Virus record (IMG/VR): IMGVR_UViG_3300043449_001161
Coordinates: 1-38,523 of that record
Reading direction: 5' to 3' (one strand)
Length of the DNA: 38,523 bases
DNA from: a virus
Part shown: positions 128-38,312 of the stretch, in pieces
Numbering within the stretch: the first letter of the stretch is position 1
Layout: every line of letters starts with the position of its first letter
Notes under the pieces: model-generated
Seen by the model: only the letters and a program-made list of their open reading frames with translations
Told to the model about the DNA's origin: nothing
The model's database searches: none
Position numbers and translations under genes: made by a program

Positions 128-224
128 TGTGCCGGGTGTCGAGTTGGCGCACGATGCGGTCTTTCAGCGACTTCGGCGCGGTGGGTGCGTCGTCCTGCGT
201 CAGTTCCAGTTCAAACTTCGCCAT
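1..224 (-). CDS. hypothetical 103-residue early protein, N-terminal part (continues at 38396)
   Basis: The gene starts at the ATG at 224, preceded by a GGAG Shine-Dalgarno, and runs off the left edge. Joined to the right end of the window after removing the 127-bp redundancy, it gives about 103 residues. The N-terminus reads MAKFELELTQ and the C-terminus is very basic (RPERKRRVAAK). It overlaps the end of the upstream gene by 14 bases, so it belongs to the early minus-strand operon that contains the TIGR-like module. I recognise no family. The charge pattern could suit a small nucleic-acid-binding protein, but that is only inference. Confidence 0.7.
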   Translation of the reverse strand, partial: MAKFELELTQDDAPTAPKSLKDRIVRQLDTRHNLEYLEAAQELKVGDGITDLNGKEADKLYRAIESCHGPRTAE

Positions 225-477
225 GTGATCTCCTCAGATTCGAGTTGTGAGCCTGCGCCAACCGCGCAAGCTCTGGCATGTGGGCCGCGCGGTACTCCTC
301 GGCCTCGGTTGTATTCCAAGCCGTTGCCAGCCAGTCTTTCGCTGTACGGTCGGCCAAATTGAACAACTCCGTGAACTTCTGGGAGACCTCGGACTCCTTG
401 CCGAAGAGCTTCTGGCAGAAGCCATGCAACTCGTCCAGTTCCCCCAAGAACACGTCGAAAATTTCCTCTTCCGTCAT
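211..477 (-). CDS. hypothetical small protein downstream of tas-like gene
   Basis: This 88-residue acidic protein starts at an ATG that overlaps the stop of the Nop-domain gene by four bases (ATGA), so the two are translationally coupled. It is mostly predicted helical, beginning MTEEEIFDVF and containing FTELFNLADRTAKDWLATAW. No metal-binding or catalytic motif is visible and I recognise no family. Its tight coupling to the tas-like gene makes it a candidate accessory partner of that system, although ordinary phage operon packing would give the same arrangement. The 3' end overlaps the next gene by 14 bases. Confidence 0.65.
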   Translation of the reverse strand: MTEEEIFDVFLGELDELHGFCQKLFGKESEVSQKFTELFNLADRTAKDWLATAWNTTEAEEYRAAHMPELARLAQAHNSNLRRSHGEV

Positions 478-1301
478 GACGGCAGCCGCTCGACGTAAGG
501 GACTTCGATCTTGTGAGCGTGCCCAAGGGCAGCAATCGGGTACGGCTGCGGCGGTGCGTATCCGAATCGGTTCCTGAACAACTGCTCATGATAATGAGAC
601 AGGAACATCTTCACTGCATACCGCTCTGCCCTCTGCTGAATGTGGGCGGGCGGAAGATGACCGGATGAATAGTGCTTGTAGGCTTCGGTGTCCTTGCCGA
701 TTTTGAACTTGGCCAACTTGGCCTCAGCTTGATCGGCCAGCACGCCAGCGGCATTGCGCTCCTGCTCGAATGCCTTGCGCTGCTGGTAAATCTTGCCGTA
801 AAAGTCGCGCTCGTTGTTCGACACCTTCACAAACGACTGGCCGATCTTCCAGCACAGGACTTTCAGCTTGGCATTAAACGGACGCTTCTGGCCCTTCTGC
901 CATGTCGTGCGCGGGTCAAGGCCGGCAAAGCTCCAAATGTGACCGACAGTCGGCGCCTTGTCGATATCTATGTGCGCCATCAGGCCAGCCGCAATGACCG
1001 GGCCAATGCCCACTACTGACTTCGCCCAAACACTCACCGGGTGCTCGTCCGTCCACCAGTTCAAAGCCTTCTTGATCTGGTTCTCCATCGTTTCGTGCTG
1101 GGTGAAAAGCCACTTCAGGACGTCGCACGGCTCCCCCGCTTCGCCAACCGATTTGACCTGGTTGGCAGCGGCGATGCGGTAATCCTGGATGGTGTAGTAG
1201 GCGTCAACCAAAAACCGGGCTTCGTCCCGGCTCATTTGTTTCACGCCCTCTTTGAGGTCTGATGTCAGTCTCTGGACCGCATCAACATTCACTTGAATCA
1301 T
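474..1301 (-). CDS. tasA: Nop-domain protein, TasA-like (IS110 C-terminal-type RNA-guided protein)
   Basis: The protein has 275 residues from the ATG at 1301, which follows the strong Shine-Dalgarno AAAGGGGGA. A GTG at 1331 would add ten residues but lacks such a site and lies at the edge of the array. Residues 15-95 form a long helical, coiled-coil-like stretch. Residues 97-112 (VGIGPVIAAGLMAHID) and 123-130 (WSFAGLDP) match the helix-hairpin-helix and GLxP signature of the C-terminal domain of IS110/IS116/IS902 transposases, the part homologous to the Nop domain of box C/D snoRNPs. The DEDD catalytic domain of IS110 is absent, and I see no HNH or RuvC motif. The C-terminal 60 residues are rich in His and aromatics. 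The gene lies about 25 bp downstream of an array of short interspaced repeats read in the same direction. Gene and array together match TIGR-Tas, and a nuclease-less Tas corresponds to TasA. The expected role is tigRNA-guided DNA binding. A stand-alone transposase remnant is less likely because of the array. The family assignment rests on motif recognition by eye. Confidence 0.82.
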   Translation of the reverse strand: MIQVNVDAVQRLTSDLKEGVKQMSRDEARFLVDAYYTIQDYRIAAANQVKSVGEAGEPCDVLKWLFTQHETMENQIKKALNWWTDEHPVSVWAKSVVGIGPVIAAGLMAHIDIDKAPTVGHIWSFAGLDPRTTWQKGQKRPFNAKLKVLCWKIGQSFVKVSNNERDFYGKIYQQRKAFEQERNAAGVLADQAEAKLAKFKIGKDTEAYKHYSSGHLPPAHIQQRAERYAVKMFLSHYHEQLFRNRFGYAPPQPYPIAALGHAHKIEVPYVERLPS

Positions 1302-1324
1302 ACTTCCCCCTTTTATTGGTTCAA

Positions 1325-1716
1325 CGCTCACTTAGTATGTGATTTCCGAGCAGATGGCTCGCTCATGCACCCTGTGATTTCTTGGAACCTGGCTCGCTCT
1401 TCGTTCGTGTGATTTCGCACTTTTTGGCTCGCTCTTGACTGCTGTGATTTCTCGATCTGTGGCTCGCTCCGCCATACGTGTGATTTCTCGCTCCATGGCT
1501 CGCTCTTTCGACCTGTGATTTCTCTGGGTATGGCTCGCTCTGCCTTAATGTGGTTTCAATCCCCTTGGCTCGCTCTTCGCGTCTGTGATTTCTGGCGCTC
1601 TGGCTCGCTCTCTATATCTGTGATTTCGAGCTATTTGGCTCGCTCTGGGGAACGTGTGATTTCTCGCGCCATGGCTCGCTCTTGGGACCTGTGATTTCTG
1701 CCGCTTTGGCTCGCTC
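1325..1716 (-). repeat. TIGR-like tandem interspaced guide RNA array, 11 dual-spacer units
   Basis: Read on the minus strand, each unit is GAGCGAGCCA, spacer A (8 nt), GAAATCACA, spacer B (8 or 9 nt), giving a period of 35 or 36. On the plus strand, TGGCTCGCTC starts at 1355, 1390, 1425, 1460, 1496, 1531, 1566, 1601, 1636, 1672 and 1707. TGTGATTTC starts at 1338, 1373, 1408, 1443, 1479, 1514, 1549 (variant TGTGGTTTC), 1584, 1619, 1655 and 1690. The array ends with a half repeat, GAGCG, at 1329-1325. The A/B spacer pairs in minus-strand order are AAGCGGCA/GGTCCCAA, TGGCGCGA/CGTTCCCCA, AATAGCTC/GATATAGA, GAGCGCCA/GACGCGAA, AGGGGATT/TTAAGGCA, TACCCAGA/GGTCGAAA, TGGAGCGA/CGTATGGCG, CAGATCGA/GCAGTCAA, AAAAGTGC/CGAACGAA, GGTTCCAA/GGGTGCAT and TCTGCTCG/TACTAAGT. 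Two different repeats alternating with two short spacers in a unit of about 36 nt is the TIGR layout, not that of CRISPR. Minus-strand transcription is assumed from the flanking operon. Confidence 0.9.
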
Positions 1717-1765: not shown

Positions 1766-2065
1766 TTACTGCTGCAACAGATCCTGCACGCGGGCGCGGA
1801 AGTCACTCAGATGCTCTTCGCGCAGGTCATTGAAATGCTCGACTCCGAATTCAGCGAACACCTCCCGGGCCACCTGAGGCGTGACTTTGTCGCAGTACTC
1901 GAGGTACAGAGCCGCCACCTGGGTGCGGAACGGCACTTCGTCCTCCACCTCCTTGGTGCTGATGCTCTTAGCCACGATCTGGAAGAACGGGATGATGTTC
2001 TGCAGGTTCTCCGCCGAAGCACTTACCGCCAAACCCGGCGCCTCAAATGTGAAAGCGAATTTCAT
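1766..2065 (-). CDS. hypothetical protein upstream of the TIGR-like array
   Basis: This 99-residue acidic protein starts at an ATG behind a good Shine-Dalgarno (TTAGGAGAATTC). It begins MKFAFTFEAPGLAVSASAEN, with a short beta-like N-terminus and a helical C-terminal half. No cysteine cluster or catalytic motif is visible and I do not recognise the family. It is the last gene before the array, with 49 bp between its stop and the first repeat. Its position in the early operon next to recombination genes gives no firm clue to function. Confidence 0.75.
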   Translation of the reverse strand: MKFAFTFEAPGLAVSASAENLQNIIPFFQIVAKSISTKEVEDEVPFRTQVAALYLEYCDKVTPQVAREVFAEFGVEHFNDLREEHLSDFRARVQDLLQQ

Positions 2066-2093: not shown

Positions 2094-2393
2094 CTAACGA
2101 ATCACGCCCCGCGAACGTAGAATGTCATCTCGCCGCATCGTCGTCCCACCGGCCTTCGCGCGCAGCCAGTTCTCGACCGCTTCCTCGACCATGTCAATGT
2201 CGACAGAGCAGCCGGTCCAGCGGCGCAGCCGTAGGTTGTGCAGATACTCCCGCAGCACCGTGTCGATGCCGGCGCGCTTCTTCCCGGCGATGATCCGGCA
2301 CGCCAGGATTCGCTCCTGGCTCATGTTGACCAGCCCCGCGGCGATCCCGCCTCCAAACAGGAAGTCGAGTTCGTTCTGTGTCGTCCAAGCCAC
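2094..2393 (-). CDS. hypothetical early protein
   Basis: This 99-residue protein starts at a GTG that shares a base with the TAG stop of the RuvC-like gene, so it is tightly coupled to it. The sequence is basic and mixed alpha/beta, with LREYLHNLRLRRWTGCSVDIDMVEEAVENWL in the middle (residues about 46-77). No known domain is evident. It may assist the resolvase, but adjacency is the only support for that. Confidence 0.65.
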   Translation of the reverse strand: MAWTTQNELDFLFGGGIAAGLVNMSQERILACRIIAGKKRAGIDTVLREYLHNLRLRRWTGCSVDIDMVEEAVENWLRAKAGGTTMRRDDILRSRGVIR

Positions 2394-2887
2394 TACTTGT
2401 CCTCCCCACGCCCGTATAGGGCAATCAGAGCCGCATCGGCGCGGCCGTCGTCTTTCACCCGCCGGAAGTACTGCTCCGCCTGCGGCAGCAGTTCACTCGC
2501 CCGCAGGCGGCTTCCCTCTTTGCCGGGGCGTACCGCCAGAGTGCGCCTCCAGACCGCAGGGACGGCCCAGGTGAGGCGATAATCGAGCGCCAGCACTATC
2601 CCCTCAATCAGCCCGGCGGCGCGCCCAAAGGTGAACATGCTGCTCACCCCCTGGCCTGGCATTGCCCCGACCCGCTCAACGCATGCCATCGCATTCGGGG
2701 CGCGGAGCATGTCGAGTAACCCGACCAGGCCCGCCGCGTGAACCTCGCGCACGACCCGCTTGCCGCGTTGCACCTCGACCACCGGCATGTCGTAGACCAT
2801 CACCGAATCCGTGTCCTGGCCCTCGGCCCGGTCAACCACGACGATGGCCCCGCCGGCGCCGGGGTCGATGCCGAGATAGCGGCTCAC
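2393..2887 (-). CDS. RuvC-like Holliday junction resolvase
   Basis: The 164-residue protein starts at a GTG overlapping the stop of the upstream gene (GTGA). The N-terminus YLGIDPGAGGAIVVVD is the RNase H-fold first strand with the catalytic Asp of RuvC-type enzymes. MACVERVG around residues 77-84 supplies the second acidic residue. DGRADAALIALYG near the C-terminus gives the last acidic pair in its usual helix. The length is normal for phage RuvC proteins (150-180). Such enzymes cut four-way or branched DNA, resolving recombination intermediates before packaging, and would act with the phage's RecT and PD-(D/E)XK-like nuclease. Nothing is missing from the active site as far as can be judged by eye. 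Confidence 0.85.
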   Translation of the reverse strand: MSRYLGIDPGAGGAIVVVDRAEGQDTDSVMVYDMPVVEVQRGKRVVREVHAAGLVGLLDMLRAPNAMACVERVGAMPGQGVSSMFTFGRAAGLIEGIVLALDYRLTWAVPAVWRRTLAVRPGKEGSRLRASELLPQAEQYFRRVKDDGRADAALIALYGRGEDK

Positions 2888-24344: not shown

Positions 24345-24620
24345 TCAGCGTTTACCTCTGGTTTTCAGCGTGTTTTCAGCGACCGCCCCGTCCCCGGAAA
24401 ACTTGTCCAGGATCTGCATGACCCTGTCGAGCCCCCGAAGAGCAAAAAACGCCCCTTCACGCTGCGCCATATTCTCAAGAGGGCTGTTTTGCCACTCCTC
24501 GAATAACCGCCGTTTCGTCATTTCGACCGCGTTTTGGAAGACCTCGTCGGTCAAGATCTCCTTCACGCGCCGTGCTCGGTCTACCTGCTGCCGAAGCTGA
24601 ATTTCTTCGTTCTCAGACAA
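24345..24620 (-). CDS. hypothetical helical protein between portal and scaffold
   Basis: This 91-residue, highly charged helical protein probably starts at a TTG overlapping the portal stop by eight bases; AGGAGG sits ten bases upstream. It begins with SENEEIQLRQQVDRARRVKE and has a second helix EGAFFALRGLDRVMQILDKF. Similar short genes between portal and scaffold are frequent in P22-like phages; their role is unknown. Confidence 0.6.
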   Translation of the reverse strand: MSENEEIQLRQQVDRARRVKEILTDEVFQNAVEMTKRRLFEEWQNSPLENMAQREGAFFALRGLDRVMQILDKFSGDGAVAENTLKTRGKR

Positions 24621-26808
24621 CCTGTGCCTCCTGTGTCGGCGCCATCGGCGGAGCCGGAACAGGCTGCGGCGCCTGCTCCGCCCGCGGCGAATCCATTACG
24701 GCCTTGATTCCAGCGATGTCGACCGCCTGGGCGTACTTCAACTCGATCTCCCGGGCCCGCAGAATCACGTCTGCCTCGTCTTTGTCCCGCTCCCGGTCGT
24801 CGCGCATGACGAGCTCGCGCTCTTTCAACGCCATCTCCTGCTGCTTGATGGCGATGTCGGCGCGGATCTGCTCCATCTGTACCTGCGCCAGAAGCTCTTC
24901 TGGCGTCTGTTTCGGCGCCTGCTGCGGCGGCTGCCAATCTGCCGGCACTTCCTGGAAGAACTGCGACGGATCCTTGAACCCGCTCAGCTCCAGAATCTTC
25001 GCCAGCGTGTTCCGGTACTGCGCCACGGTCACCAGCGGGTTCACCGGCCCGTACTGCTGCAGCACGCCCTCCTGCCGCTGCGCCACCTGCATCAGCGTCG
25101 CGACCCGCTCCTGCACTGTCCCGGCCCCAACAGCCACATTCACGACCACGTCGGCGTCGACGTTCCACTCAGCCGGTGAAACAGGCACCCAGCGGCCGCG
25201 CAGACGCATCATTCGCGCCTGGTCCTGGTGACGGGCCAGTAACTTCGCGATGCCACGCATGGCCGGCTTCAGGCCAGTCTCCGCCAACACCCGCGCAATC
25301 ATCTCGATGTGCTGGTGAGCCGCCGAAACAGTCGCCGCCACCGCGGCCTTCGTGGTCGACTGCAGGGCGTCAGCGTCGAGGCCGGCGGCCGCCTTCGAGA
25401 TCCCCGTACGGTCCTGCTTCACGGAGTCCATGACCGCCAGCACATCAAGCACTTCCCGCCCGACAAATGGAACCGTCAGCGGCTGCACCATCCCCGGCTG
25501 CCGCGAACGGATAATGGCGCCGACATCGGTGTTCAACACGTCGGCCATTTCGACCTGGCTGTCGACCACCACAAGCCGCGGATCAGTCGTGAGGGCCAGA
25601 GAATTCAACATCGCCCGCATCAGGCTCGTCTTGATGCGCTGAATGTCAGTGAGAATGTCTCCAAGCCCGTTACCAAACACCGTATGGGGCTCAGGATCAC
25701 TGCAGAACATGGCTATCGGCCGGTGGTCTACTGGCTCGTTCCGCATGATTTCGTGCGACTCACCAATCGCGCAGATCTGCCGCAACTCAGCAATCCCGTC
25801 GCCGTCATAATCGACGCGCGCATAGGCCTCTACGTACAGCACCGGCCGGTTCGCCTCGTCAGACGGCGTGCTCACAGGCTCGGCAAAGCCAGGAATCCGC
25901 TTCCGCGCCTCGATCGACATGTCGTCCCACTCGGACGTCCCTGCGTATTCCTCGACCTCTTCCCGGTCGTAGCCCATGGCGACCAGGTCAGACACGCTCT
26001 TGTAGCATTTCCGCGCCACGAACCGCGCCGACTCGATCGACCGGGCCGTCGCCTCGATCAGCAACTCTTCCGGCGGAACGGATTCAATGACCACTCGCCC
26101 TTTTCCGCGATAGTTCCGCACGACAACGTCGACCAGGCCATCAGGCCTCGGCGCCGGCTGCGCCATCCCGCCCGCCATCGCAGCTTCCTGCGCCAGCATC
26201 TGCGCCGCCTCAGGCGTCAACCCCTCATAACGGTCCTCAGACACGTCCACAGAGTCATCCCAGCGCCACTGCAGGATCCCCATGTCGCGGATCAGCGCAT
26301 CCTTGAACGCCGCATGCAGCACCAAAAACCCAGGGTTGTCGACCTTCAACACAAAGTCGACAGCGTCCGTCATCTGCTCGGCAGCCGCCACATCCTCAGG
26401 CCCCCGCGGCGTGAACTCAGCCACCCGCTCCGGCCCCCAAAAGATCCGCATCAGGGAAGGCATGATGGCGTTGACGACGTCGCGGAAGTCGCGGCTCACA
26501 GCCTTGCTCCGCCCGTCCTCCTCGTCCCCATAGGGCTCGCCAGCATACCGCTTGGTCAGCTCTTCCCGGTGACCACTAAGTGTCTGCTGGACGCTCTGCG
26601 CCATGTCGATCTCGGCGCGCAGATACGCCTCGAGATCCTCATCATCCATCGGCTCCGGCGGCTCTACTCCGTGCTCTTCGCCAATCTCGTCTTCGTCGAG
26701 GAGGCCAGGTCCGTACTCCCCAGCCTCCCCGCCTGCGCCGACAGGAGAAAACGGCGCAACGGCTCCAGGCTGGAGGGGGACCGCACCCAGAATGCCGCCT
26801 TGTGCCAT
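24613..26808 (-). CDS. portal protein, P22-like
   Basis: This protein has 731 residues from the ATG at 26808; a TTG at 26832 would add eight. It is close in size to the P22 portal (725). After a disordered acidic start, residues about 45-110 hold EAYLRAEIDMAQSVQQTLSG and SRDFRDVVNAIMPSLMRIFW. The middle (LIEATARSIESARFVARKCY, NGLGDILTDIQRIKTSLMRA) matches the core of P22-type portals. A long charged helix near the C-terminus (KDEADVILRAREIELKYAQA) resembles the barrel helix. It forms the dodecameric DNA channel and binds TerL. Confidence 0.88.
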   Translation of the reverse strand: MAQGGILGAVPLQPGAVAPFSPVGAGGEAGEYGPGLLDEDEIGEEHGVEPPEPMDDEDLEAYLRAEIDMAQSVQQTLSGHREELTKRYAGEPYGDEEDGRSKAVSRDFRDVVNAIMPSLMRIFWGPERVAEFTPRGPEDVAAAEQMTDAVDFVLKVDNPGFLVLHAAFKDALIRDMGILQWRWDDSVDVSEDRYEGLTPEAAQMLAQEAAMAGGMAQPAPRPDGLVDVVVRNYRGKGRVVIESVPPEELLIEATARSIESARFVARKCYKSVSDLVAMGYDREEVEEYAGTSEWDDMSIEARKRIPGFAEPVSTPSDEANRPVLYVEAYARVDYDGDGIAELRQICAIGESHEIMRNEPVDHRPIAMFCSDPEPHTVFGNGLGDILTDIQRIKTSLMRAMLNSLALTTDPRLVVVDSQVEMADVLNTDVGAIIRSRQPGMVQPLTVPFVGREVLDVLAVMDSVKQDRTGISKAAAGLDADALQSTTKAAVAATVSAAHQHIEMIARVLAETGLKPAMRGIAKLLARHQDQARMMRLRGRWVPVSPAEWNVDADVVVNVAVGAGTVQERVATLMQVAQRQEGVLQQYGPVNPLVTVAQYRNTLAKILELSGFKDPSQFFQEVPADWQPPQQAPKQTPEELLAQVQMEQIRADIAIKQQEMALKERELVMRDDRERDKDEADVILRAREIELKYAQAVDIAGIKAVMDSPRAEQAPQPVPAPPMAPTQEAQVV

Positions 26809-26860
26809 GACGCCATGAAACCATGCCGTCAATCAACACTGCAAGCAAATCATCGCCTAC

Positions 26861-30201: not shown

Positions 30202-30621
30202 TCATGCCGCCCCGCCACCATACCACCCTGGATTACACCTCGGGCACTTGCCGGCGAACTCGTAGTGGTTGCCCTTGATGATCCGGGTTCGCGTGATCCA
30301 GCCCGGCGGCCGTCCGTGGCGGCAGAGGTCGCAAAAGCCTCTGGTGGTTTGTGTTTGCTCGGCGTAGGCGTCCTCGGGCTGCTGCTGGCGAATCCAGCGC
30401 ACAAGCTCGCCGGGCGTGGGCGGCACGTTCGTCTCTCGGTTTGACGCCCGGGCCTCGTTGGCGAGTAGCGCAGTGATGGCGTTGGTGAGCTCGATTTCCT
30501 GGCGCGCTGTCTCCACCGCTACCCGCAGCAGTTCCGCAAAGCCTTCGGCGCCGATGCGCCGGAAGTAGGGAATTCCCATCATGCGGCGCAGCTGGTTGTC
30601 CGCGAAGTCTCGGCTGATCAT
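30202..30621 (-). CDS. zinc-ribbon protein downstream of the replication gene
   Basis: The 139-residue protein overlaps the DUF1376-like gene by four bases. An N-terminal helical half (MISRDFADNQLRRMMGIPYF) is followed by C-x2-C (CDLC) and a C-terminal C-x2-C (CPRC), a zinc-ribbon arrangement. The position after an initiator-like gene is where phages often encode a helicase loader or replication accessory protein, but it has no AAA+ motif. It is the last gene of the early operon. Confidence 0.65.
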   Translation of the reverse strand: MISRDFADNQLRRMMGIPYFRRIGAEGFAELLRVAVETARQEIELTNAITALLANEARASNRETNVPPTPGELVRWIRQQQPEDAYAEQTQTTRGFCDLCRHGRPPGWITRTRIIKGNHYEFAGKCPRCNPGWYGGGAA

Positions 30622-31421
30622 TGCGGCCGCCTTGCGAACGGGTCGGTGTTGTCGAACTCAGACTCAGGTGCTGGCGGTTGCTTGCGGTAACTCTCGTCGT
30701 GCAGCCACTTGTCCAGCGACGGTGCAAACCTGTTGCCGTTGCGCGCCCAGGCTTCGCACCACTGGGTGAGCGATCCCGAGACCGTGAGCATGAACGCCGC
30801 GTACTTCGCCGCGTCGCCGCACTTCAGCCAGTGGTCAACGCAGAACTGCTCCACCAGCCGCCGCGGGCTCGGCTTGGGGTGTATCTCTCGGAGCTTCTCC
30901 GACCAGTACTCCGGCGTTTGGTGGAAATCGGCGGCCGCTGGGTCCAAGGCGGGGAATATAGGGGTGGATACTATGGATGAGGATGAGGAAGAGGAAGAGG
31001 ATGGGTAGGAGTTCGCTAGAGCTATAGGTAGAGCTATAGGTACAGCAGTAGCTTCAGCTATAGCTTTAGCTGTAGCTAGGTTTTCCGCCTTCTTCTTTCC
31101 GCCTAAAGCGCCGTTCCTTTTCTTCGATTCGCGCCACCTGACAAGCTCTGGGCGCATCTGGTTTACGCGCTCGTTCTCGTATCGATCCCCATTTAGAATG
31201 AACATCTTGCCGAAGATCGCCCAGTGCTTCCTCATCCGCGCGACAGTGCAATCGGCGATTTTGGCGAGGTGTTTTTCGTCGGCTGGAAGGCTCCCATTCA
31301 GCCAGCAATAGTCGAGCAGTTCCCGATAGATGGCGCGGCCTTCCAAACTGAGACGAAATCTCGTCTCAGATCGCTGCCAATCGGACACATACCAGGGGTA
31401 GGAATGGATAATTTCGCTCAC
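30618..31421 (-). CDS. DUF1376-type replication protein (putative initiator)
   Basis: The 267-residue protein has an N-terminal DUF1376/YdaU-like domain: HSYPWYVSDWQRSETRFRLS, GRAIYRELLDYCWLNGSLPA and a winged-helix-like HLAKIADCTVARMRKHWAIF. The middle (about residues 115-150) is a low-complexity Ala/Ile/Pro stretch and a run of nine or ten serines, encoded by 12-bp repeats. The C-terminal part is an accessory-type domain (RRLVEQFCVDHWLKCGDAAK, then WLHDESYRKQ) like those in phage replication proteins. Such genes usually specify origin recognition or primosome loading. Repeats inside the gene recall the lambda O/ori arrangement. Confidence 0.75.
   Translation of the reverse strand: MSEIIHSYPWYVSDWQRSETRFRLSLEGRAIYRELLDYCWLNGSLPADEKHLAKIADCTVARMRKHWAIFGKMFILNGDRYENERVNQMRPELVRWRESKKRNGALGGKKKAENLATAKAIAEATAVPIALPIALANSYPSSSSSSSSSIVSTPIFPALDPAAADFHQTPEYWSEKLREIHPKPSPRRLVEQFCVDHWLKCGDAAKYAAFMLTVSGSLTQWCEAWARNGNRFAPSLDKWLHDESYRKQPPAPESEFDNTDPFARRPQ
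31016..31075. repeat. five 12-bp iterons, candidate replication origin
   Basis: Five contiguous 12-mers on the plus strand read CTAGAGCTATAG, GTAGAGCTATAG, GTACAGCAGTAG, CTTCAGCTATAG and CTTTAGCTGTAG. They share AGCTATAG-type cores and lie inside the replication gene. An adjacent hexamer-repeated purine tract (about 30976-31004) encodes poly-Ser. Iterons inside an initiator gene are a known origin design; function here is inferred. Confidence 0.65.
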
Positions 31422-32828: not shown

Positions 32829-33980
32829 CTACATTCTAAAGGACAAATTAGATTCTTCTGTTGCAGTGTTGCCGTTTTGTAGCGGCTCCATCGCAGCCCA
32901 CATCCGCTCCAGGGATTGTTCCATCTGCACCTGGCGCGATTTCACCCACGGGGCGTAGTGCTTTTGGGTGACGGCGATGGAGGTATGCCCCAGAAGCATC
33001 GCCACCTGCTCGATCGCCACTCCGGCCTCCAGGAGCTCGACGGCAAACGTATCGCGGAGGCGGTGCAGGTGGCCGTTCTTCACCTTGGCCGTCTTGCACA
33101 GCCGGCGGAAGGCGCGGGCGTAGTTGCTGCCCACCGTGTCTGGGTCAGATTGCCCACTCCAGAACCAGTACGACTCCGACACCCGAGGGACTGAGCGCAG
33201 CGCGTCGGCCACTGCCGGCGGGAGTACGGTCCACACTGGCACCCCGGTCTTCGCCGTCGATAGCAGCATCCGGTTCCCGTTGATCGCCGACACTGGCAGC
33301 GTTGCGATGTCCCGGCGCCGCAGTCCCGTGTAGCGCCCGACCAGGATGTAGGCGTGCAGGCGGGCGCCCTCATCCTTGCTTCCCTGCCCCGGCGCCGCGG
33401 CAAGCAACTTCACCATCTCCTCACGGGTGAACGGCAGCGTCGGCGTGTGGCGGATCTTGGGCGCCTTGATCTCGGCGGCCGGGTTCCGCTTGAGGTAGCC
33501 AGCAGCGACCCAGAACGACATCGCCGCCCTCACCTTCGCCAGCCGAATCGCCTGCGTAGCCGGCGCGAGCTTCCAGGACGCCCGCCATGCCGTCAGGAAC
33601 TCGAAGTCGATCTGGGAGACGTTCTGCACGCCGCGGGCCTCAGCGAAGGCCAGCAGCGACGACCCAGTGGGTGTCTGCAGGTCTGTCCGGTATGCCTTCA
33701 ACGTGGAGCGACCCAACCCACGGGCGCGGCAGTCGGCAATAAACTCCTCCACTGCGTCCTCGATAGTCTTTGACGTCATCACCTTCCCGGCCATCTCGAT
33801 TTCGTGGATCTTGTCTTGCGCCTTCTTCCAGTCGCGCGTTTTGAGCGTCTGCTGGATGCGTTCGCCGTTCAGGGTACCTTCGACCCACACCGGGCACTTG
33901 CACTGTCTCCAGGCCCGTCCTTTCGCAGCGTGCGGGCATTTCTTCGAGTGGCGCCGGAATGGGTTTAACATGCAGTGCAT
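32829..33980 (-). CDS. int: tyrosine recombinase integrase
   Basis: The 383-residue protein has an N-terminal Cys/His/Arg-rich DNA-binding arm (KKCPHAAKGRAWRQCKCPVW), a core-binding domain at about residues 70-165, and a catalytic domain. The catalytic set is Arg221 (TGLRRRDIATL), Lys244, His306-x-x-Arg309 (HRLRDTF), His332 (LLGHTS) and the nucleophile Tyr342 (HYAPW). It integrates and, with the excisionase-like protein, excises the phage. The length is normal. The likely attP lies in the AT-rich zone just downstream (32690-32830), but no core could be identified. Confidence 0.93.
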   Translation of the reverse strand: MHCMLNPFRRHSKKCPHAAKGRAWRQCKCPVWVEGTLNGERIQQTLKTRDWKKAQDKIHEIEMAGKVMTSKTIEDAVEEFIADCRARGLGRSTLKAYRTDLQTPTGSSLLAFAEARGVQNVSQIDFEFLTAWRASWKLAPATQAIRLAKVRAAMSFWVAAGYLKRNPAAEIKAPKIRHTPTLPFTREEMVKLLAAAPGQGSKDEGARLHAYILVGRYTGLRRRDIATLPVSAINGNRMLLSTAKTGVPVWTVLPPAVADALRSVPRVSESYWFWSGQSDPDTVGSNYARAFRRLCKTAKVKNGHLHRLRDTFAVELLEAGVAIEQVAMLLGHTSIAVTQKHYAPWVKSRQVQMEQSLERMWAAMEPLQNGNTATEESNLSFRM

Positions 33981-36671: not shown

Positions 36672-37057
36672 CACTCGAAGCTCCTTTCCTGCCACCCCTG
36701 ACCCTTGACCTGCCACTGCATCCGAAACTCCACCGGGAACATCTGCGCCGCCGTCTTGATCCGCACCAGCGCCGCTTCCTCGATCAGCGGTGAGCCGTCC
36801 TTCTTCGCCCCTTTGACCTCAAACGCCACCAGCCGCCCGTCGTCGTACTGCACCATGAAATCCGGCGTGTAGCGGGCGTCCTTGGCCCACTTGAAGCTCA
36901 TCGCCTCGAATCCGTGCCAGATGATGGTGCCATCCTTCACTAGCGGCATCAGCACCTCGCGCTCAAACCGCTCTTCGGTCTTATTCATGACTCCGGGGGT
37001 ACGCTTGCGCGTGGAAGCCTTTGCGCCCTTGCGCCGTCCGTGGAATCTGCTTCTCAC
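36671..37057 (-). CDS. PD-(D/E)XK-like nuclease (DUF1064/endonuclease I-like)
   Basis: This 128-residue protein starts at a GTG overlapping the RecT stop (GTGA). YTPDFMVQYDDGRLVAFEVKG at about residues 63-83 contains the PD...(D/E)xK nuclease core, split as PDF and E-V-K-G. The size and arrangement resemble DUF1064-type or small restriction-like nucleases next to phage single-strand annealing genes. It may process DNA ends or junctions with RecT and the RuvC-like enzyme. The start of the frame is basic (RSRFHGRRKGAKASTRKR). Confidence 0.75.
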   Translation of the reverse strand: MRSRFHGRRKGAKASTRKRTPGVMNKTEERFEREVLMPLVKDGTIIWHGFEAMSFKWAKDARYTPDFMVQYDDGRLVAFEVKGAKKDGSPLIEEAALVRIKTAAQMFPVEFRMQWQVKGQGWQERSFE

Positions 37058-38142
37058 GCCAGCACCTCCTCAGCCGCCGAAAGCACGCTGTCGAAGTCAG
37101 TGGCACGGACCTGATCCACCTGCGTGTAGCCGTGCCGCCGCAGCGCCTCGTCCAGCCGCCCGTGAGCGCCAGCCGCCACAAGCCGCGCTTGCTGCCCTGA
37201 CGTGATCGGAGCGCCGCGCTTCGCCTTCTCCAGTTCCGCCGCGCCCACGCGCTTTACCGCATCGCGCTGCTCCTCGTAGGTGTCGCCGCCGCCGTCCACC
37301 ATGGGTCGGTTGTCGGCCGGGTCCAGCGCCGCTACCAACTCCACCATGCCATCGGCCAGCGGCATCGGGGCGCCCATATCCACCGCGTCGTCGATCTCCT
37401 GCGAGGTCAGCAGTTGGGCGCTCATCGGCCAATCGTTTGCGGCCCGGTGAATCACGGTCTTTCTCGCCATGCGGTCGTAGTCGGTCACCCACGGGAGCCG
37501 GTACGGGCTCTTGAAGTCCATCGTCACCACGTCCATAGCGCGAATCTCGGCCAGCGTCAGGCCCTTGACTGTGCGCCCGTAGTGCTGGAAGTCCACCGCC
37601 GCGCCAGCCTTCGCCCGCCGCCTCACCGCCTCGATCTCGGCAAGCGTCATGATGTTGACTTGGTTGCTGCCGTTGATTCGCGCCGAGACGAACACCGCCG
37701 TGATCTCGCCCCGGTCTTTTCCAGGTCGCCAATCGAACACCAGCCCGTCACGGTCAAACCCGTAATCGAATTTGTCTCCCTCGCGGACGAGTTCACAGTG
37801 GATCGCGCCTACGCCGGCCCGCCGCGCGAGTTCCATCTTGCCGTGGTAGTCCACCACCAACTGGCACTCGCGCCCGTAGGGGATCAGGTATGCGCTGTTC
37901 TTGCGGATCTCCAGCCCGAGATTTGAGGCGAGGAGTACGCTATTGAGGAAGCTGACCGGGGTGCATCCGGCCAGCTTCGGGTTTGTGGCAATGCTGTTCA
38001 TGACAAGCATCGCGCAGCGGTCGGGAGAAAGGTGCGCCGGGAGGACCTTCCTAAAATTCCCGCTGTACTGCTTCAGGATGCCCATGACCGACTGCGCGGC
38101 CTCCTGCTGGATCGGCGTCTCTGCCTTTACCATCTCGCTCAT
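37054..38142 (-). CDS. recT: RecT-family single-strand annealing protein
   Basis: This protein has 362 residues from the ATG at 38142, preceded by GGGAGGGG. It shows the RecT family pattern: LPAHLSPDRCAMLVMNSIAT, LNSVLLASNLGLEIRKNSAY, LIPYGRECQLVVDYHGKMEL and WVTDYDRMARKTVIHRAAND. RecT anneals complementary single strands and promotes recombination, often with an exonuclease. No RecE was recognised; the downstream PD-(D/E)XK-like protein may fill that role. The C-terminal 80 residues are hydrophilic, as usual. Confidence 0.9.
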   Translation of the reverse strand: MSEMVKAETPIQQEAAQSVMGILKQYSGNFRKVLPAHLSPDRCAMLVMNSIATNPKLAGCTPVSFLNSVLLASNLGLEIRKNSAYLIPYGRECQLVVDYHGKMELARRAGVGAIHCELVREGDKFDYGFDRDGLVFDWRPGKDRGEITAVFVSARINGSNQVNIMTLAEIEAVRRRAKAGAAVDFQHYGRTVKGLTLAEIRAMDVVTMDFKSPYRLPWVTDYDRMARKTVIHRAANDWPMSAQLLTSQEIDDAVDMGAPMPLADGMVELVAALDPADNRPMVDGGGDTYEEQRDAVKRVGAAELEKAKRGAPITSGQQARLVAAGAHGRLDEALRRHGYTQVDQVRATDFDSVLSAAEEVLA

Positions 38143-38312
38143 CGCACCCCTCCCTGTAACAGCCAATCGGCCACCTTCTCCAGTTCCATGTCGTGCCGCT
38201 CTTCCGCGGCTTTTGTCGCATCCTCGCGACCTTCGCGGTATCCCCGCCAGTAGCCGTAAAACAGCGCGGCGATGGCGACCGACGACGAAAAAGCCCAGTC
38301 AGCGACCGTCAC
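38139..38312 (-). CDS. 57-residue membrane-associated protein
   Basis: A GTG at 38312 overlaps the previous stop (GTGA) and opens a 57-residue frame. It begins MTVADWAFSSSVAIAALFYG and continues with a charged helix (REGREDATKAAEERHDMELE). Residues 6-21 could cross the membrane. The stop overlaps the RecT start. Coupling supports it; the family is unknown. Confidence 0.6.
   Translation of the reverse strand: MTVADWAFSSSVAIAALFYGYWRGYREGREDATKAAEERHDMELEKVADWLLQGGVR

What the first reader, a model, noticed from the sequence alone, without database searches (positions are those of the whole stretch)
474..1716. Phage-encoded TIGR-Tas-like locus: dual-spacer array plus nuclease-less Nop-domain (TasA-like) protein
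Seen: 11 units of 35-36 bp, each with two different conserved segments and two variable 8-9 nt segments, directly upstream of a 275-residue protein with the IS110/Nop C-terminal signature (VGIGPVIAAGLMAHID, WSFAGLDP). Known: TIGR-Tas systems pair Nop-domain Tas proteins with arrays of about 36-nt guide units that carry paired spacers; IS110 recombinases share that domain. Inference: this is a TasA-type system that binds DNA under RNA guidance without cutting it. In a phage it could silence genes, guide the phage's own regulation or exclude rivals.
Basis: partly seen in the sequence, partly recalled or inferred. Interest (0 to 1): 0.97.

Follow-up and report, generated by a model that had tools for sequence, protein, structure and literature searches.

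The report
Phage TIGR-TasA dual-spacer guide locus
A bacterial virus carries a small gene and a string of paired 8-letter guide sequences that together form a member of the recently described TIGR-Tas RNA-guided DNA-binding systems, in a form without a cutting domain, and comparison with over a hundred related arrays suggests each guide pair reads one unbroken 16-letter stretch of natural DNA.

Summary
On the minus strand the window holds 11 dual-repeat units (edge GAGCGAGCCA, spacer A 8 nt, loop GAAATCACA, spacer B 8-9 nt), a truncated edge GAGCG, then a 275-aa gene. The protein passes NCBI's TIGR-Tas model (213 bits, cut-off 100), folds like TasR/TasH, and has no nuclease domain: TasA type. 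Hundreds of relatives lie in viral contigs, nearly all fetched ones beside GAGCGAGCCA-type arrays on the tas strand. Spacers differ between relatives, so this is not a fixed satellite. Phage-borne TasA with dual-repeat arrays was described in 2025 (Faure et al.), so this is a new member of a known kind. New here is a target-free test: in 1402 non-redundant spacer pairs from the family, the string A+rc(B) joined with no gap has natural-DNA neighbour statistics at the join (z about 4; correlation 0.90 with genomic dinucleotides). Other gaps, other arrangements and spacers across the edge repeat do not. So pairs appear to read contiguous 16-bp DNA sites, one spacer per strand. No target organism was identified. 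Function (blocking rival mobile DNA, or regulation) remains inference.

The parts
474..1301 (-). tasA-type gene, 275 aa, solo Nop-domain Tas protein (open frame extends to GTG 1331; AGGGGG ribosome-binding site before ATG 1301)
   Evidence: NF052498 3.9e-63; PDB 9mty/21kl; no nuclease domain
1325..1716 (-). TIGR dual-repeat array, 11 units, transcribed strand = tas strand by inference
   Evidence: same orientation in relatives
1707..1716 (-). first (5') edge repeat GAGCGAGCCA; ten more at + strand starts 1672, 1636, 1601, 1566, 1531, 1496, 1460, 1425, 1390, 1355
1690..1698 (-). first loop repeat GAAATCACA; others start at 1655, 1619, 1584, 1549 (variant GAAACCACA), 1514, 1479, 1443, 1408, 1373, 1338
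1325..1329 (-). 3' truncated edge GAGCG closing the array
   Evidence: sequence; matches the array ends described by Faure et al.
1766..2065 (-). co-oriented 99-aa hypothetical gene just upstream of the array
   Evidence: no family match
211..477 (-). co-oriented 88-aa hypothetical gene overlapping the tas stop codon
   Evidence: no family match
32829..33980 (-). tyrosine integrase of the carrier phage
   Evidence: PF00589 3.7e-17
24613..26832 (-). portal protein of the carrier phage
   Evidence: tblastn to annotated portal / head-to-tail proteins
37054..38166 (-). RecT-like annealing protein of the carrier phage
   Evidence: PF03837 1.5e-31

Best explanation
This is a TIGR-TasA system in a temperate tailed phage. 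The array is most likely transcribed together with tas and cut in the middle of each edge repeat into 11 guide RNAs of about 35 nt (AGCCA-A-GAAATCACA-B-GAGCG). A TasA dimer holds each guide by its edge and loop boxes (GA...CCA and GA...ACA). Spacers A and B then pair with opposite strands of one contiguous 16-bp DNA site that reads A followed by the reverse complement of B with no gap. Having no nuclease, TasA should unwind, bend and occupy the site, blocking transcription or replication. Shown: locus anatomy, family membership, lack of a recognisable nuclease, spacer turnover among relatives, and the contiguous gap-0 signature at family level. Inferred: transcription, processing, dimer, binding in this phage, and the biological purpose. 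Most likely purpose (about 50%): interference with competing mobile DNA; next (about 30%): regulation of host or phage genes.
For: NCBIfam TIGR_Tas 213 bits; PHROG 'transposase' family 4285; PDB sequence hits TasR 6.8e-15 and TasH 1.2e-9; AF2 model (pLDDT 77.5) closest to TasR 9mty and TasH 21kl, E 9e-8 and 2e-6. Array anatomy matches Faure et al.. 436 matched stretches in viral contigs encode relatives, with arrays on the tas strand. Of 83 distinct edge/loop consensus combinations, 72 share the 5' dinucleotide and 77 the 3' dinucleotide, as expected if both repeats bind a symmetric dimer. The nearest relative L024 (75% Tas identity) has the same rare loop GAAATCACA but none of the spacers. 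Junction test: A+rc(B) gap 0, z 3.6-5.2 in all full sets except the smallest, most strictly filtered one; both data halves positive (2.8, 2.3); across-edge control z 0.84; dinucleotide correlation 0.90. Simulated contiguous sites give z 7.0, independent spacers -0.1.
Against: No RNA or protein data. No natural target found: nothing beyond chance in the phage itself or in about 0.95 Mb of portal-related phages; 0 exact matches in 2 Mb of the chromosome carrying L023. The window alone has only 11 pairs, so the geometry rests on the family. Observed junction z is about half of what full contiguity predicts, and it vanishes (0.63) when only 319 pairs are kept by very strict filtering. The promoter scan found nothing above shuffles.
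Confidence: 0.9

Rival explanations
1. The protein is an IS110-type recombinase or its remnant, and the repeats are unrelated tandem repeats.
For: Pfam Transposase_20 5.8e-5; weak IS110 score; IS621 fold similarity at 2e-3.
Against: IS110 score far below cut-off while the TIGR_Tas score is over twice its own cut-off; no DEDD domain found; TasR/TasH are much closer in fold; the repeat-gene association recurs in nearly all relatives on the same strand.
Confidence: 0.02
2. TasA with these guides serves the phage's own or its host's gene regulation (dCas-like silencing) rather than competition with other mobile DNA.
For: No nuclease; spacer GC (0.48) is lower than phage coding GC (0.56), a little toward intergenic GC (0.53).
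Against: No targets in the window itself at up to 2 mismatches; no excess in 2 Mb of a host chromosome carrying a 40-pair array; spacers turn over between related phages, unlike fixed regulatory guides; 16-mers have slightly more open frames than mispaired controls, z 2.2, which leans to coding DNA.
Confidence: 0.3
3. The locus assists integration or recombination by RNA-guided DNA bending (a suggestion in Faure et al.).
For: The phage has an integrase and a recombination module near the locus if the map is circular; Faure et al. propose it.
Against: No conserved neighbour gene across 100 loci; arrays with 11 to 46 different guides are hard to reconcile with one or two att sites.
Confidence: 0.07
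4. The array is a decayed, fixed satellite with no guide function.
For: Spacers are short and no convincing target was found.
Against: Relatives carry different spacers; repeats are kept at 99% loop identity in the window while spacers vary; the junction signal across the loop repeat but not across the edge repeat requires paired spacers with common origin.
Confidence: 0.02

Closest known systems
TIGR-TasA with dual-repeat array, e.g. Flavonifractor plautii FpTIGR (Faure et al. 2025, PMC12045711)
   Same: Solo Nop-domain protein without nuclease; alternating edge and loop repeats; adjacent array; about 36-nt unit.
   Different: 8-nt instead of 9-nt spacers; repeats GAGCGAGCCA / GAAATCACA with GA/CA boxes; lies in a temperate phage; array upstream of the gene (FpTIGR array is downstream).
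TIGR-TasH of Salicola phage CGphi29 (L009)
   Same: Phage-borne; 8-nt spacers; edge AAGCGAGCCA differs by one base from the window's; similar Nop domain.
   Different: CGphi29 Tas carries an N-terminal HNH nuclease and cleaves; array downstream of the gene.
TIGR-TasR (PDB 9mty)
   Same: Nop domain, dimer, tandem-spacer targeting; best PDB match by sequence and fold.
   Different: RuvC nuclease at the N-terminus, 9-nt spacers, UG/CCA boxes.
IS110 family (IS621, PDB 8wt6)
   Same: Distant Nop-like RNA-binding domain.
   Different: DEDD catalytic domain and single bridge RNA; neither found here.

Membership tests
TIGR-Tas | Nop-domain Tas protein | tested here: met
   NF052498 213 bits, cut-off 100; Foldseek TasR/TasH
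TIGR-Tas | Adjacent array of two distinct alternating 8-12-nt repeats | tested here: met
   10-nt edge and 9-nt loop, 11 units
TIGR-Tas | Paired variable spacers of about 9 nt | tested here: met
   8 nt (20 of 22) or 9 nt (2 of 22), all different; 16 nt in total also reported for CGphi29
TIGR-Tas | Array ends in a 3' truncated edge repeat | tested here: met
   GAGCG at 1325-1329
TIGR-Tas | Box motifs covary between edge and loop repeats | tested here: met
   GA...CA in both repeats; 72/83 (5') and 77/83 (3') in the family
TIGR-Tas | Rho-independent terminator after the array | tested here: not met
   None on the minus strand; array runs into tas. A typical, not a defining, feature of the family
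TIGR-Tas | Processing to about 36-nt tigRNA bound by Tas | not testable with these tools
   Needs small-RNA sequencing
TIGR-Tas | The two spacers target opposite strands of one DNA site | tested here: inconclusive
   Supported at family level by the junction statistics; 11 pairs are too few to test the window alone
TasA subtype | No RuvC or HNH nuclease domain | tested here: met
   Pfam scan finds none; 275 aa; query residue 49 aligns to TasR residue 125
IS110 transposase | DEDD/RuvC-like catalytic domain and score above the IS110 model cut-off | tested here: not met
   31.5 bits versus 140; no such domain
CRISPR-Cas | Single repeat of 25-36 nt with similar-sized spacers | tested here: not met
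   Two short alternating repeats with 8-nt spacers

The most novel reading that the evidence does not exclude
In phage TIGR-TasA arrays each spacer pair is taken from, or selected to match, one contiguous 16-bp stretch of natural DNA (A then rc(B), gap 0), and pairs turn over and recombine between related phages. The arrays would then be a living store of guides against other DNA, maintained without a known acquisition protein.
Probability: 0.5. Interest if true: 0.8.

Novelty: new member of a known kind. Interest (0 to 1): 0.5.

Why it matters
Faure et al. state that genuine targets, spacer origin and the role of nuclease-less TasA are open, and that A and B show no obvious covariation. The family gathered here, about 2000 spacer pairs, shows a weak but specific covariation at the inner ends of A and B that matches natural dinucleotides. 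This gives the natural target geometry without knowing any target, and a rule (16 bp, gap 0) for target searches in matched metagenomes. It makes the question 'what do TasA guides aim at' directly testable.

Tried and rejected
1) Targets in the window itself: none up to 2 mismatches. 2) Targets in ~0.95 Mb of portal-related phages and ~1.5 Mb of tas loci: one exact hit (unit 1, gap 2, in the tas gene of L094), judged chance because it lies in a variable insert and is the only one. 3) A gap-2 excess (74 vs 47, z 3.6) did not replicate in new data (combined about 111 vs 100): rejected. Gap 0 showed a modest overall excess (summed: 198 vs 154 at up to 1 mismatch), but the individual hits show no pattern. 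4) One search was contaminated by loci fetched with a spacer pattern (L102-L114); redone without them. 5) One shared spacer pair scanned against all viral contigs: 13 hits, none convincing. 6) Host-chromosome targeting in L023: none in 2 Mb. 7) Two KBS 96 prophage guides hitting L070 within 312 bp: L070 appears to be an unrelated AT-rich phage, judged chance. 8) An apparent edge/loop swap in L035 was my phase error. 9) A conserved accessory gene: none. 10) Rfam: nothing relevant.

Full report
OBSERVATION. The window is a 38.5-kb virus record. On its minus strand, 1716 down to 1325, there are eleven units: GAGCGAGCCA, 8 nt, GAAATCACA, 8 or 9 nt. They end in a truncated GAGCG followed by AGGGGG and the ATG of a 275-aa gene (1301-474). 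The upstream gene (1766-2065) and the downstream gene (211-477, overlapping the tas stop) have the same orientation, so array and tas probably share a transcript.

PROTEIN. NCBIfam's TIGR_Tas model scores 213 bits against a cut-off of 100. The model is named 'endonuclease', but this protein has no recognisable nuclease domain: its residue 49 aligns with TasR residue 125. The predicted structure (pLDDT 77.5) is closest to TasR and TasH in the PDB, then to IS110-family IS621. It is therefore a solo-Nop TasA in the sense of Faure et al. 2025.

FAMILY. Scans of viral contigs found 436 matched stretches that encode relatives; public genomes gave 14, including prophage-like loci in Acidobacteriaceae bacterium KBS 96 and Halomonas sp. 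NO4. Nearly all fetched loci carry arrays on the tas strand, with edge repeats close to GAGCGAGCCA and loops such as GAGAGAACCA. The edge motif used to find arrays was fixed, but loops were read by position only: 74 of 83 distinct combinations have loops starting with GA, and 77 of 83 share the 3' dinucleotide with the edge. The nearest relative, L024 (75% identity), shares the unusual loop GAAATCACA and no spacer, in an otherwise different phage. So tas and repeats travel together while spacers change.

TURNOVER. Some related phages share part of their spacer pairs: L030/L033 share 8 of 24-25, L045/L052 share 4, L079/L083 share 5. Shared pairs come in blocks, sometimes with exchange at a repeat, and some differ by single bases. 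This is a mosaic, not a fixed satellite and not a set of unrelated spacers.

TARGETS. From the cleavage geometry in Faure et al. (8-nt 3' overhangs) I derived that the target reads A then rc(B). Direct searches for such sites gave no convincing target in the window, in portal-related phages, among tas-bearing phages, or in 2 Mb of a host chromosome. An early gap-2 signal failed to replicate.

JUNCTION TEST. If A and rc(B) come from one contiguous stretch of natural DNA, the bases that meet at the join must show the neighbour preferences of natural DNA. I scored the join with neighbour statistics from the fetched phage DNA against permutations of B within each locus. With 1402 pairs kept after removing similar ones, A+rc(B) at gap 0 gives z 3.6, 3.95 and 3.86 for contexts of 1, 2 and 3 bases. 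Other gaps and the three other arrangements give no comparable positive signal; the next highest is gap 3 at about 1.9, and one negative value reached -3.1. Less strict filtering gives z 4.9-5.2, and the two data halves give 2.8 and 2.3. The strictest filtering leaves only 319 pairs and z 0.63. Spacers adjacent across the edge repeat, the key negative control, give 0.84. The junction table correlates 0.90 with genomic dinucleotides, and neighbours inside spacers correlate 0.87. Simulated contiguous sites give z 7.0, sites with gap 1, 2 or 4 give about 0, and independent spacers give -0.1. Roughly half of the full signal is therefore present: either about half of the pairs are contiguous, or all were and have drifted, or some arrays are imperfectly parsed.

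MEANING. The geometry found in natural TasA arrays is the one shown biochemically for TasR and TasH: each spacer reads one strand of the same site. That supports RNA-guided DNA recognition by this nuclease-less family. It does not show binding by this protein, nor what the DNA is. Spacer GC (0.48) follows phage GC (0.56) with slope 0.68 but is lower than both coding and intergenic GC, so spacers are not a random sample of the carrier phage. I favour interference with other mobile DNA because of the turnover, the many guides per array and the lack of self targets; this is inference.

VERDICT. A genuine, typical phage TIGR-TasA locus: new member of a known kind. The added value is the family-scale evidence on target geometry and spacer turnover.

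Noticed in passing
L030 3451-4315, L032 1767-2163, L033 2662-3562, L035 2344-3964: Four related phages with similar flanks carry mosaic arrays: shared blocks of spacer pairs, junctions at loop repeats, and single-base spacer variants (e.g. TTTCTGTG with ATCGGTGA, AGCGGTGA or TGATATGC).
   Followed up: partly
L003 9852-9923 and 11419-11490: Two consecutive units are duplicated between the upstream and downstream arrays of the same locus.
   Followed up: no
L023 11583-13556: A Latescibacterota chromosome carries a tas gene with about 50 TIGR units in several blocks; no chromosomal targets in 2 Mb.
   Followed up: partly
window 2285-2794: A sub-threshold TIGR_Tas score (13 bits, frame with two stops) falls on the Holliday-junction resolvase region; taken as chance.
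   Followed up: partly
family-wide spacers: Spacer position 1 is poor in G/C (A: T 0.36, A 0.27; B: A 0.34, T 0.30) and spacer GC is several points below phage GC.
   Followed up: partly
L024 9735-9960: The first A spacer AAGCAACA resembles the window's first A spacer AAGCGGCA (6 of 8) at the same 5' array position; possibly a remnant of common descent.
   Followed up: no
window 31015-31078: GCTATA hexamer-like tandem repeat inside the primosomal-protein-like gene (30618-31421).
   Followed up: no
NCBIfam NF052498: The model name 'RNA-guided endonuclease' is misleading for nuclease-less TasA members such as this one.
   Followed up: yes
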